A stretch of 64,000 nucleotides of DNA from a bacterium. Its GTDB lineage: Bacteria > Actinomycetota > Thermoleophilia > Solirubrobacterales > Solirubrobacteraceae. The stretch is from the NCBI GenBank assembly GCA_021323635.1, contig JAJPKQ010000017.1, positions 124,001 through 188,000 on the forward strand. The letters are read 5' to 3'. The first letter of the stretch is position 1. Each line of letters starts with the position of its first letter. The translations under genes and the position numbers were made by a program. Shown here piece by piece: positions 59,373-63,456 of the stretch. The notes beneath the pieces were generated by a model that saw only the letters and a list, made by a program, of their open reading frames with translations, was not told where the DNA came from and did no database searches.

Positions 59373-59584
59373 CAGTAGATCCTGCAAGCACACTCGCGAC
59401 ACGCTGCAACGACCCTCGAACACTCCTGGAAAACCACCCAATTGCAGGGACTTTCACTCGATTGCAGGTTGGCGGATCGCGGCGGTAAGCGCAACATCAC
59501 ATGCAAAACCGTCACCTGCGCGCGATCTTGCAGCAACATCTCTTGCAGGAGCCCTCGAGAGCGGCCCGGATATACGATCCCGCG

Positions 59585-61480
59585 GTGGCTTCGCTGCCAG
59601 CAAAGCGCAAGGGCGTCATCGGCGCAGCCCTGACAGGAGCACTCGCCGCTGCGATGCTCGGCGGCTGCGCCGCAAGCGCCCCGCCGGCGCCCAGCCCCGC
59701 CGGCGCGGTCCCCGCGCGTGCGCCCCTCTACATCGCGCTGGACGTCAGCCAGGAAGGTGCGCTCGCGCGTCTGACGCGCACCGACGCAGCTCGAGTCACG
59801 GGGGCCAAGCAGCCCTACGGCTTCCTCTACCGGCTGCTCTCGCTGCGCGGCGGCAGCGCACCGCGCTCAGCGGTGCTCCCGTTCCTCGGCGCGCAGGCAG
59901 GCGTGTTCCTGGAAAGGATGCCGCCACTGGAAGCCGCCAACGGCTCTCCCGCAGCGCTGATCGCCTTCGCGCGCTCGATTCTCGAAGGCGGGCTGCGCCA
60001 CCTTGCGGGCGCCGCCGTGCCGGGCGCGCTGATCGCCGACGTGACCGACCCCGGTGGCGCCCGCGCCTACATCCGCAGGCAGAGCGCGGGCCTGCACGCG
60101 CGCATCCTCCCGTTCGGCGGCGTCAAGATGACGATCCTCTCCGACGGTCAGGCCGCCGCGGTCGCGCGCTCCTTCCTGCTGATGGGAAATATCGCCGGCG
60201 TGCGCTCCGCGATCGCAACGATCGACGGCGCGCCGGCGCTGCGGCCCGCCTCCCCCTTCGCAGCGATGCATGCCGCTGCACCCACGGGCGCGGTGGCAGC
60301 CGTCTATCTGCGCCTGCCAAGCAGAGCCGAAGCCTCCGAAGCGGGCAGCGAAGGCGAAGCGCAGTCGAGCAGCGCGCAGAGCGAAAGCTCAGGCAGCCTC
60401 ACCGCCAACCCTAAGGCGGCCAAGGGCGCGCGCAGCAGTGGCCGCGCGCCCGCCAGTGCCGGCGAGCCGCCCTACCTGCGCGAGCTGATCGGCCCTCCGG
60501 GCAGCGCTCTGTACGTGAGCCTTGTGCCCCGCTCTGGCTCGATACGGCTGGTGGTCGATCGGCTGCGCGGCGAAAGCGCCGATCCGCCGAGCACCTCCGA
60601 AAGCGAACAGCAGCAGAGCACCCAACAGCTGCTCGCCTCGCTGCCTGAAAGCTCCTGGGTAGCTGCGGCGCTTGAAAATCTGCCCGATGCGCTTCACAAG
60701 GTGCTTGCGCTCGCCCCCGCGCTTGCCTACCTCAGCGGCGCCGCGCCAAGCCCGCAGGGTGCCGCCAGCGGCAGCGAAGCGAGCTTCCGCTCGGCTCCTC
60801 TGCCGTTCACCGCCGGCCTGCAGGCGCTGCTCGGCACGCTCGCTGGCCTCGGTGGCTCCTCGCTCGCCGGTCTGATCGCGCCGGCTCGCCAGCTCGTGGG
60901 CGCGCTTGGCGCACATCCCCGCGCTCTGCGCCAGGCGCTCGCCGGCTGGATGGGTCCCGCAGCACTCTTCCTCAGCGGTACAAGCCTGCTTGAAGTCGAT
61001 GGAGCGATTGTCATCAGCTCCCGCGACGAAGCCCGCTCGCGCGCTGCTGTCGCGCAGCTGGGCGCGCTCTTCCGCAGCGCCCACATTGCCGTCAAGCCGC
61101 TCTCCGTCGCCGGGGCGCAAAGCGCGATCGCCGTCGCTCTCGCGGGTCTGCCCGGCGGGCTTCAGATCGCCGCCGGAGAGGGCAAGCTGGTGGCGGGCTT
61201 CGGCGCGGCGCCGATCACCGAGGCGCTATCGCCAAGCGTGCCGCTCGGCTCCGCCACCGCCTACCGCAGCGCGCAGAGCGCGCTTGGCGAAGGGCTCTCG
61301 CCGCGCCTGCTCATCTCCTTCCCCCAGCTCACCGCGATCCTCGGCCTGCTGGGCGCCAACAGCAGCCCGAGCCTTGCGACGGTGCTTCCTCACCTCTACT
61401 CGCTCTCGTCGCTGACGCTCGGGGTCGGACGCATCGGCTCCGAGCAGCGCACTGCGGTCGTGCTGAGCCTCACGCCCTGA
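59585..61480 (+). CDS. DUF3352 lipoprotein
   Basis: A protein of 631 residues from GTG 59585. The start LPAKRKGVIGAALTGALAAA is a lipoprotein signal, with lipobox MLGGC and the lipidated Cys near residue 31. The body fits DUF3352: repeated helix-strand segments such as APLYIALDVSQEGALARL, GFLYRLLSLRGG, VAAVYLRLPS and a final SLTLGVGRIGSEQRTAVVLS. A Ser/Glu-rich stretch (about 260-295) is an insertion. The role is unknown. It is divergent from mraZ, so it shares the 361-base region with the MraZ operator. ATG 59501 is in frame but would bury the signal peptide. GAA outnumbers GAG. Confidence 0.8.
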   Translation: MASLPAKRKGVIGAALTGALAAAMLGGCAASAPPAPSPAGAVPARAPLYIALDVSQEGALARLTRTDAARVTGAKQPYGFLYRLLSLRGGSAPRSAVLPFLGAQAGVFLERMPPLEAANGSPAALIAFARSILEGGLRHLAGAAVPGALIADVTDPGGARAYIRRQSAGLHARILPFGGVKMTILSDGQAAAVARSFLLMGNIAGVRSAIATIDGAPALRPASPFAAMHAAAPTGAVAAVYLRLPSRAEASEAGSEGEAQSSSAQSESSGSLTANPKAAKGARSSGRAPASAGEPPYLRELIGPPGSALYVSLVPRSGSIRLVVDRLRGESADPPSTSESEQQQSTQQLLASLPESSWVAAALENLPDALHKVLALAPALAYLSGAAPSPQGAASGSEASFRSAPLPFTAGLQALLGTLAGLGGSSLAGLIAPARQLVGALGAHPRALRQALAGWMGPAALFLSGTSLLEVDGAIVISSRDEARSRAAVAQLGALFRSAHIAVKPLSVAGAQSAIAVALAGLPGGLQIAAGEGKLVAGFGAAPITEALSPSVPLGSATAYRSAQSALGEGLSPRLLISFPQLTAILGLLGANSSPSLATVLPHLYSLSSLTLGVGRIGSEQRTAVVLSLTP

Positions 61481-61623
61481 TCGCTGCGGCACACGGTCAC
61501 TGCAAGATGCCGTTCAGCACGCTTCGCAGGCAGGAAATCCACCTACGATGGCGACGGTCGGTTCTTGCAGTCGCCACGGACGGCGGGGCCACCAGCCCAA
61601 CAGAAAGGAACGGCTCTCTTGCC

Positions 61624-62121
61624 ATGCAACGGACGCGTCGCGGAAACTATGAATCGGGGCAGGATTTCGTGCTCGAGTACGGCCCCCTGCGCTTCACCTT
61701 CAACGAGCTTGACTTCACCGAGCGCTGCGAGCAGGCGGCGATCCGCCTGGCCTTCATCGGCGGCCAGCTCGGCGAGGGCGAGCGCGAAGACCTCGTCAAC
61801 CTGACCGTCAACGGCTCCGTCAGCGAGCCGATCTCGCCGCTCGGGCGACATGTCAACGACTGCTGGCCTGAGCTCGTCGGACCGGCGTCGCGATCGCTGG
61901 TGCACTGGCTGCGGCGATTGATCTTCCGCTCAGCGTGGCTTGACCAGCGCGTCCGCGAGGGCGAGCTGGATGTGAGCTTCGAGGAGTCTGACGGCAGCTT
62001 CACCTACATCTCGCCGGAGCGACCGGGCGAGGCGATCGAGCTGGCCTCCCCGCCCTCCTGGCGACGCGTCGCCTACCTGCCCACGCACTCGGGCCCGGGT
62101 CACTCCGGCAGCAGCATCTGA
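61624..62121 (+). CDS. Protein of unknown function
   Basis: A protein of 165 residues from ATG 61624, with AAAGGAA about 14 bases upstream. The sequence is acidic and soluble: DFVLEYGPLRFTFNELDFTE, RLAFIGGQLGEGEREDLVNL, GRHVNDCWPELVGPASRSLV, HWLRRLIFRSAWLDQRVREG and SDGSFTYISPERPGEAIELA. There is no membrane segment and no motif I recognise. It is convergent with the Rho-like gene, 51 bases apart. Composition and codon use look like a real gene. Confidence 0.72.
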   Translation: MQRTRRGNYESGQDFVLEYGPLRFTFNELDFTERCEQAAIRLAFIGGQLGEGEREDLVNLTVNGSVSEPISPLGRHVNDCWPELVGPASRSLVHWLRRLIFRSAWLDQRVREGELDVSFEESDGSFTYISPERPGEAIELASPPSWRRVAYLPTHSGPGHSGSSI

Positions 62122-62172: not shown

Positions 62173-63456
62173 TCAGCGGCCGAGCAGCCGCGATAGCAGC
62201 GAGCGTCGGCGGCGCAGCCTCGCGGCGCGCTCGCGCGCAATCGCCGCCGCGCCCTGCTCGCCGACCAAAAGCTCGACCTTGAGCGTGCCGGAGGCCTGCG
62301 GATCGATGCTGAAGGGCTGGCCGGGAGCGTGCTCGCCGCTGAGCGTCACCACCGAGGTCTCGCCGCCGAACGGCGCGCCTGCCGTGGCGATGATCGTGAG
62401 CGAGCCCGCGCCGCGCTCGTTGCGAGCATGCGCCATCACGCGCCTGGCCTCCCCGGCCTCGAGGCCGTCCAAGGTGTCGATCAGCACCAGCGCGCGCCCG
62501 CCCGATGCGCAGACGCGCTCGGCCTTCGCAAGCACCGGCTCGAGCGCCTGCAGACGCTCCTGCGCAGAGGCGGTGAAGGTGAGAGCGCTTACGGGAGCCG
62601 GGGCACCCTCCGCGCGACTGCCGATCTCCTCTGGGCGCACCCCGGAGAGCACGAGCTGGCAGTCGAGATCGCCACGGCCTGCAAGCGCCTGCGCGATGTG
62701 CGCCAAGAGCTCGCTCTTGCCTGCGCGCGTCGGCCCTGCGATCAGCGCCCGGGAGCCAAAGCCCAGCGGCGCCAGCGCCTCCAGCTCGCGCAGCGCCGGG
62801 TCGCCGCCGAGCTCCAGGCGCTCTTCGGGGAAGGCCGGCCCTCCTGTGCGCGCCGCGCGCTCGCGCCGACCACGCTCGCGCGCCGGCGGCGGCGCCTGGA
62901 CGGCAAGGTCGGCAGGAACGCCGTTGATCGTCTCCACCCGCACCAGCGCGGCGCTGCCCTGGGTGCGGCGGCGGCGGCGCACCGGTCCGCTCACGCGATC
63001 ACCATTCTTCAGCTCGCAGCGCTTGACCTGTGAGGGCGAGATCGCGACCTCCTCCTCGCCGCCGTCCGGCGCCTTGGCGCGCAGCACCGCCGCGCCACCC
63101 GCTCGCAGCTCGATCACGCCCTCCACCACTTCGCCGGTTCGGAAGCTGCTCTGCGCCGGCTCAGCCGCGGGCTCGGCCGCCGCACGACGCGGCGCGCGCC
63201 GGGGCGCCCGGCGCGACCTGCCGGCGCCCGTGCGCGTCCGCGCACCCTCGCCTTCGATCTCCGCGAGCTCGTCCTCCTTGACCGCTGCGGCGCGCTCGCG
63301 GAGATCGCGCGCGGTCACCGCGCCGCCCGCGAGGATCGCGGCGATCAGCTCCTCGCGACGCAGCAGGCGGTAGCCGTCGATGCCCATCTCGTTGGCGATC
63401 GCGTGCAGGTCGGCGAGCGGGCTTGCCTGCAGCTCGGTGCGGTCAAGGACTGTCAT
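62173..63456 (-). CDS. Divergent Rho-like transcription termination factor
   Basis: A protein of 427 residues. The N-terminus (ELQASPLADLHAIANEMGID, GYRLLRREELIAAIL) is a clear Rho_N domain. A basic linker (about 60-100) leads to an RNA-binding OB-like region (about 105-180) with the Rho-typical ISPSQVKRCELKNGDRVSGP and RVETINGV. The ATPase part is reduced: Walker A is GPTRAGKS (241-248) and Walker B is VLIDTLD (324-330). Where Rho has DERPEE it has SGVRPEE, and the R-loop and C-terminal ARAYN region are missing. It may be a lineage-specific Rho or a paralogue. ATG 63456. Confidence 0.8.
   Translation of the reverse strand: MTVLDRTELQASPLADLHAIANEMGIDGYRLLRREELIAAILAGGAVTARDLRERAAAVKEDELAEIEGEGARTRTGAGRSRRAPRRAPRRAAAEPAAEPAQSSFRTGEVVEGVIELRAGGAAVLRAKAPDGGEEEVAISPSQVKRCELKNGDRVSGPVRRRRRTQGSAALVRVETINGVPADLAVQAPPPARERGRRERAARTGGPAFPEERLELGGDPALRELEALAPLGFGSRALIAGPTRAGKSELLAHIAQALAGRGDLDCQLVLSGVRPEEIGSRAEGAPAPVSALTFTASAQERLQALEPVLAKAERVCASGGRALVLIDTLDGLEAGEARRVMAHARNERGAGSLTIIATAGAPFGGETSVVTLSGEHAPGQPFSIDPQASGTLKVELLVGEQGAAAIARERAARLRRRRSLLSRLLGR

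What the first reader, a model, noticed from the sequence alone, without database searches (positions are those of the whole stretch)
62173..63456. Rho-like factor with normal RNA-binding part but a reduced ATPase
Rho_N and the OB-like region are easily recognised, yet the motor is short. The DERPEE-type segment is SGVRPEE, and the R-loop and the conserved C-terminal region are missing. The Walker A is GPTRAGKS. It may be the lineage's only Rho working by a changed mechanism, or a paralogue acting as an RNA-bound regulator. That makes it one of the more unusual proteins here.
Basis: partly seen in the sequence, partly recalled or inferred. Interest (0 to 1): 0.6.

Follow-up and report, generated by a model that had tools for sequence, protein, structure and literature searches.

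The report
Order-wide Rho that lost its motor
This gene is the only copy of Rho, the near-universal bacterial protein that stops transcription, in a whole order of soil bacteria, and there the engine that should drive it has been taken apart step by step, so these bacteria show what is left of Rho once its motor is gone.

Summary
The 427-aa ORF at 62173-63456 (-) is real and is a Rho (Rho_N, OB domain, RecA-type fold), but its motor is dismantled. The catalytic Glu (E. coli E211), arginine finger (R366), R269 and the Q-loop and R-loop are gone. Walker A Lys and Walker B Asp remain. The RNA-binding part is not normal either: the window's copy lost Y80, E108, R109 and F64 equivalents, three of which are invariant in its 84 nearest relatives. 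The genome (97.5% complete) has no canonical Rho, nor do 60 other genomes of its order (Solirubrobacterales, including single-contig ones). Synteny through one family shows it is the orthologue of canonical rho, not a paralogue. The order shows several stages: Walker A Lys replaced, catalytic Glu lost, RNA-contact residues lost (f4 and the window species), and gene absence (two genera; several other families of the class). In most of the order the OB domain is under strong purifying selection, so the protein is not a pseudogene there. Most likely it is a non-translocating, RNA/RNAP-docking relic of Rho; in the window species even RNA docking is probably impaired. The role is inferred, not shown. 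A 2024 survey of Rho diversity could not be read.

The parts
62173..63456 (-). degenerate Rho orthologue, 427 aa
   Evidence: ORF; Pfam/NCBIfam; AF2 model pLDDT 87; Rho fold
63331..63435 (-). Rho_N domain (residues 8-42)
   Evidence: Pfam PF07498 5.4e-12
63133..63249 (-). low-confidence, low-complexity Arg/Ala-rich linker (about residues 70-108)
   Evidence: pLDDT 40-55; fastest-evolving part, dN/dS about 0.3-0.8 in most relatives' pairs
62914..63126 (-). Rho OB / primary RNA-binding domain (residues 111-181)
   Evidence: Pfam PF07497 2.1e-14; 7 of 24 columns that are >=95% conserved in 84 relatives differ here, the most of any copy in that set
63085..63087 (-). V124 in place of primary-site Phe (E. 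coli F64)
   Evidence: F in 81/84 relatives
63043..63045 (-). A138 in place of primary-site Tyr (E. coli Y80)
   Evidence: Y in 84/84 relatives
62956..62961 (-). Q166-G167 in place of Glu-Arg (E. coli E108-R109)
   Evidence: E and R in 84/84 relatives
62713..62736 (-). Walker A GPTRAGKS (residues 241-248), Lys and Ser retained
   Evidence: K in 80/84 nearest relatives, but R in 8/9 of f3, A/T/V in f2, A in f4
62626..62646 (-). SGVRPEE (residues 271-277): catalytic Glu (E211) replaced by Val, Arg valve (R212) retained
   Evidence: V/A/I in 84/84 nearest relatives; E in 8/9 of f3 and 6/6 canonical
62461..62490 (-). Walker B strand LVLIDTLDGL (residues 323-332), Asp retained, R269 equivalent is Gly
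   Evidence: D in every row of the alignment
62446..62460 (-). junction where the Q-loop segment (E. coli about 272-291) is deleted
   Evidence: gap in all order sequences, present in 6/6 canonical of the class
62356..62367 (-). GGET, a motif new to this family at the position of the R-loop (residues 364-367)
   Evidence: GGE invariant in 14 family members; E in 83/84 relatives where canonical has K/R326
62281..62283 (-). L392, in place of the arginine finger (E. coli R366)
   Evidence: L/I/M/V in 84/84 nearest relatives; R in 6/6 canonical
62179..62274 (-). single C-terminal helix replacing the canonical C-terminal region
   Evidence: DSSP H395-426; canonical tail absent
61507..62121 (+). convergent neighbour, 204-aa protein of unknown family, conserved partner in the order (context, function not assigned)
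   Evidence: homologue near the Rho gene in 8 of the 10 order loci examined, f1, f3 and f4 and in most of the larger set of order loci; no Pfam match

Best explanation
The gene is the direct orthologue of the termination factor rho. In this order (Solirubrobacterales) Rho has lost its motor: the RNA-gripping Q- and R-loops and the arginine finger are gone in all members sampled, the catalytic glutamate in most, and the Walker A lysine in several families. What is left is a Rho-shaped protein with the Rho_N/OB face and a RecA-like core that, in this family, may still bind a nucleotide but should not hydrolyse it effectively or pull RNA. In most members the RNA-contact residues in the domain that in E. 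coli Rho also touches RNA polymerase are kept under strong purifying selection, so it most likely acts as a static RNA- and/or RNAP-docking regulator rather than a helicase terminator. In the window's own species the RNA-contact residues have gone too, so there it is probably further along the way to loss, or keeps only a protein-protein role. Shown here: orthology (by synteny through one family), absence of any other Rho, loss of the residues, selection on relatives. Inferred: loss of ATPase and termination activity, static docking role.
For: Only Rho in the genome; no canonical Rho in 61 genomes of the order, including single-contig ones, against 253 of 296 phylum genomes with one. Residue table across 106 order sequences, 6 canonical ones of the class and E. 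coli. Gene order metallophosphoesterase - 460-aa protein - ATP-cone kinase - (glpX) - rho shared between canonical rho of sister families and the degenerate rho of f4; f4 joined to f1 and f3 by the convergent neighbour. dN/dS mostly 0.04-0.12 in the OB domain and 0.1-0.3 in the ATPase domain of relatives. Confident Rho fold. Roles of Walker A/B, catalytic Glu, Arg valve, Arg finger, Q- and R-loop, and RNAP contacts in the NTD: PMC8828861.
Against: No biochemical or expression data. f3 keeps the catalytic Glu and R269, so the decay is not complete everywhere. Retention of Walker A Lys and Walker B Asp in the window's family may mean that nucleotide still matters. A static docking role is weakened for the window species by its loss of the RNA-contact residues. 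dN/dS could not be measured for the window's own branch (nearest relative about 50% identical).
Confidence: 0.68

Rival explanations
1. Relic on the way out: after the motor was lost nothing important remained, and the gene is being lost lineage by lineage; the window's copy is close to non-functional.
For: Absent from 7 genomes of genus g259 and 2 of g260 inside f3 and from the sampled genomes of f5, f7 and f10 that were examined; RNA-contact residues lost in f4 and the window species; protein only about 41-51% identical to relatives in its genus and family while neighbouring metabolic genes are mostly 62-79%.
Against: Kept in 108 of 120 order genomes; strong purifying selection on the OB domain in close pairs; intact ORF and codon-position GC pattern in the window; invariant new residues such as GGE.
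Confidence: 0.25
2. ATP-independent terminator: it docks on NusG/NusA-modified RNA polymerase and inactivates it allosterically, without translocation, as proposed for the early steps of E. coli Rho action.
For: E. coli Rho can engage elongation complexes through its N-terminal domains before binding RNA (PMC11018626; PMC8828861); those domains are the best conserved part here; NusG present in all 18 genomes tested.
Against: E. coli Rho still needs its motor for full termination (own knowledge); NusG is also kept in genomes with no Rho at all; the window copy lost RNA contacts.
Confidence: 0.2
3. Still a working Rho motor with rewired catalysis (for instance the new conserved GGE glutamate replaces E211).
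For: Walker A Lys 80/84 and Walker B Asp kept; GGE invariant within the family.
Against: Q-loop, R-loop, arginine finger and R269 are all missing, and in f2 and f4 even the Walker A Lys; no new conserved basic residue seen in place of the finger.
Confidence: 0.08
4. A paralogue or laterally acquired Rho-like regulator beside a canonical Rho that the assembly missed.
For: The window genome is a 97.5% complete draft.
Against: Same picture in 60 further genomes including single-contig ones; one Rho OB domain per genome; synteny with canonical rho.
Confidence: 0.03

Closest known systems
Transcription termination factor Rho (TIGR00767 / NF006886; E. coli, M. tuberculosis)
   Same: Domain order Rho_N - linker - OB - RecA-like core; fold; Walker A Lys, Walker B Asp and Arg valve in the window's family; syntenic position in the class (through f4)
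   Different: No catalytic Glu, arginine finger, R269, Q-loop, R-loop or canonical C-terminal region; primary-site residues lost in the window copy; profile score 124 against a cut-off of 509
NCBIfam NF041509, 'transcription termination factor Rho, short form' (paralog_Rho2)
   Same: A shortened Rho
   Different: Score 95 against a cut-off of 628; named as a paralogue, whereas this is the sole copy and has Rho_N
Lineages that lack Rho altogether (Cyanobacteria; some Bacilli)
   Same: No Rho motor in the lineage
   Different: Those lack the gene (PMC13289151, PMC13323073); here a motor-less gene is kept in most of the order

Membership tests
Transcription termination factor Rho (active) | Rho_N and OB RNA-binding domains | tested here: met
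   Pfam over cut-off
Transcription termination factor Rho (active) | Full-length profile score above the NCBIfam cut-off | tested here: not met
   124 against 509 bits
Transcription termination factor Rho (active) | Core primary-site residues (F64, Y80, E108, Y110) | tested here: not met
   V, A, Q, S in the window; kept in most of the order except f4
Transcription termination factor Rho (active) | Walker A Lys and Walker B Asp | tested here: met
   K and D present in the window and its family; Walker A Lys not kept in f2, f3, f4
Transcription termination factor Rho (active) | Catalytic Glu and arginine finger | tested here: not met
   E211 to V, R366 to L
Transcription termination factor Rho (active) | Q-loop and R-loop secondary RNA site | tested here: not met
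   Q-loop deleted, R-loop replaced, in all order sequences
Transcription termination factor Rho (active) | Hexameric ring, RNA-dependent ATPase, termination | not testable with these tools
   no assay; monomer model only
Orthologue of rho by descent | Conserved gene neighbourhood with canonical rho | tested here: met
   three upstream genes shared between f4 degenerate rho and canonical rho of f8 and f9; f4 joined to the window's family by the convergent neighbour
Orthologue of rho by descent | Order sequences form one clade beside canonical Rho in a tree | tested here: inconclusive
   tree separates canonical Rho from the order's families with long branches; root by midpoint only, so polarity is not resolved
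Rho short form paralogue (NF041509) | Score above the family cut-off and presence beside a canonical Rho | tested here: not met
   95 against 628 bits; no canonical Rho

The most novel reading that the evidence does not exclude
A whole bacterial order keeps, under purifying selection, a Rho without a motor that works on nascent RNA or RNA polymerase without ATP-driven translocation: a natural separation-of-function form of Rho.
Probability: 0.45. Interest if true: 0.85.

Novelty: new variant of a known kind. Interest (0 to 1): 0.7.

Why it matters
How much of what Rho does needs its motor, as against docking on RNA polymerase and RNA, is debated. An order with cultured members (Solirubrobacter, Conexibacter, Patulibacter) that has only motor-less Rho, next to relatives with intact Rho and relatives with none, is a natural experiment: it allows termination, antisense transcription and 3' ends to be compared across the steps of Rho's loss in related bacteria. 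It also warns that automatic annotation may label these proteins as termination factor Rho.

Tried and rejected
Second rho missed by the assembly: rejected. Remaining Rho-profile hits in the genome (C30, C5) match only the ATPase region inside 529-576-aa frames; taken as ATP-synthase-type or flagellar-type ATPases, not followed further. Catalytic residues in shifted positions: looked for in the alignment, not found. Paper searches for Rho with Thermoleophilia found none, with Solirubrobacter only unrelated community papers among those listed; the two main surveys of Rho distribution (D'Heygere 2013; Moreira 2024) could not be read: Moreira 2024 is not held, D'Heygere 2013 appeared only in reference lists and was not looked up. 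The midpoint-rooted tree does not settle the order of loss events.

Full report
What is there. The ORF at 62173-63456 on the minus strand is intact (427 aa, ATG). Pfam finds Rho_N (5e-12) and the Rho RNA-binding OB domain (2e-14), both over cut-off, and only traces of an ATPase domain. The full-length Rho models score 124-128 bits over the first 265 of 413-415 positions, far below their cut-offs of 315 and 509. By sequence the best solved relatives are Rho chains (E 5e-27). An AlphaFold2 model from 30 relatives has mean pLDDT 87 and matches solved Rho with Foldseek E 3e-23 and VIA-align Z 25.8 over 294 residues, rmsd 4.3 A. A second model, of a typical family member, has mean pLDDT 83 with a similar layout.

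Residues. I aligned the protein with 105 relatives from its order, six canonical Rho proteins from the same class and E. coli Rho. Roles of the residues are as given in PMC8828861. In the window: catalytic Glu E211 is Val, arginine finger R366 is Leu, R269 is Gly, the Q-loop segment is deleted and the R-loop is replaced. Walker A Lys184, Walker B Asp265 and the Arg valve R212 remain. In the OB domain F64, Y80, E108, R109 and Y110 have become V, A, Q, G and S. Y80, E108 and R109 are invariant in the 84 nearest relatives and F64 is kept in 81 of 84. Of 24 OB columns that are at least 95% conserved in those relatives, the window copy departs at 7; the next worst copy in that set departs at 3 and the median is 0.

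The only Rho. In the window's genome (2.64 Mb, 97.5% complete) this is the only Rho. In 61 genomes of the order, none has a Rho over the family cut-off, and 58 have a match to this protein. Several of these are single contigs (G031, G037, G053), so a missed contig cannot explain it. Over the phylum, 253 of 296 genomes have a canonical Rho, and 16 of the 20 genomes with no match at E 1e-25 belong to this class. Record titles of matching contigs place the order as Solirubrobacterales, with the cultured genera Solirubrobacter, Conexibacter, Paraconexibacter and Patulibacter; a contig of the window's genus mate G007 has the same length as PLYX01000078.1, a Solirubrobacterales MAG 'palsa_744'. That the class is Thermoleophilia is my own knowledge.

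Several stages. Families f6, f8 and f9 of the class have canonical Rho. In the order: f3 keeps the catalytic Glu (8/9), R269 and the C-terminal helices but has Walker A Lys changed to Arg in 8/9 and no Q- or R-loop; f2 has Walker A Lys changed to Ala, Thr or Val, no Glu and no C-terminal region; the window's family f1 keeps Walker A Lys (80/84 of the nearest relatives) but has no Glu; f4 has lost Walker A Lys and the RNA-contact residues. In a survey of 229 class genomes at least 90% complete, 108 of 120 genomes of the order have the OB domain; two genera of f3 (seven and two genomes) have none, and no match was found in the f5, f7 and f10 genomes examined, nor in two of f9 (the 108 and 120 are my counts from the printed table, taking the 68 unlisted genomes to lie outside the order as the sorting implies). 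NusG is present in all 18 genomes tested, with or without Rho. The order in which the losses happened is not resolved by the tree, which is rooted at the midpoint only.

Orthologue, not paralogue. In families with canonical Rho, rho is preceded by a metallophosphoesterase, a roughly 460-aa protein and an ATP-cone kinase (with glpX next to rho in the f8 locus L103). The same three genes precede the degenerate rho in f4 (35-60% identical). f4 is joined to f3 and f1 by a convergent gene next to rho, which in the window is the 204-aa ORF at 61507-62121. The link from the window's own copy to canonical rho therefore runs through f4.

Selection. In close pairs of relatives, dN/dS of the OB domain is mostly 0.04-0.12 (up to 0.71 in one pair), of the ATPase domain mostly 0.1-0.3 (0.62 in one pair), of the linker mostly 0.3-0.8. 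The protein is therefore constrained in most of the order. It still evolves much faster than canonical Rho: canonical copies of f8 and f9 are 82-89% identical, whereas the window copy is about 41-51% identical to the relatives compared. The neighbouring genes of the window genome are also more diverged than usual, so part of this is lineage-wide. The window copy has the second-longest terminal branch in the sampled f1 part of the tree, after L169.

Mechanism. Shown: residues lost, orthology through f4, sole copy, selection. Inferred: without arginine finger, catalytic Glu, Q- and R-loops the protein should not translocate on RNA. In E. coli the N-terminal domains carry the RNA primary site and the contacts to RNA polymerase, and Rho can engage elongation complexes before binding RNA (PMC8828861; PMC11018626). 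As these domains are the best-kept part here, I favour a static RNA- or RNAP-docking role in most of the order, with the window species and f4 further decayed. The main rival is a relic on the way to loss.

Novelty. Lineages without Rho are known (Cyanobacteria, some Bacilli; PMC13289151, PMC13323073), and Rho is reported in about 90% of bacteria by Moreira et al. 2024 as cited in PMC13269538. I found no paper in the library that joins Rho with this class. The 2024 survey is not held and the 2013 one was seen only in reference lists, so earlier notice of this pattern cannot be ruled out.

Noticed in passing
window 61507-62121 (+): 204-aa protein without Pfam match, convergent with the Rho gene and conserved beside it in most of the order; it may be worth its own look.
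   Followed up: partly
L125 (contig CAMCUD010000069.1): A contig labelled 'Bifidobacterium breve' MAG carries the Solirubrobacterales-type Rho and has the same length (7818) as G033:C69, so the public label is probably wrong.
   Followed up: no
G470-G478 (genera g259, g260 of family f3): Nine genomes, 90-100% complete, with no Rho OB domain at all, inside a family that otherwise has degenerate Rho: apparent complete loss.
   Followed up: partly
G222, G326, G387, G394, G435 (family f35), G397 (f65), other classes of the phylum: Rho matches clearly weaker than most of the phylum (E 1e-81 to 1e-128): possibly another divergent Rho lineage.
   Followed up: no
G076:C3:511221-512279 and G129:C1:926606-927836: Canonical rho reads with in-frame stops or split in two frames; may be assembly errors or fresh breaks.
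   Followed up: no
window 59501-61480 (+): 659-aa protein with a weak DUF3352 match (19 bits, below cut-off).
   Followed up: no
L095 7513-12510 (window 63513 and beyond): Glycerol-3-phosphate dehydrogenase-like gene followed by NAD(P) transhydrogenase genes upstream of the Rho gene, conserved in the family.
   Followed up: partly
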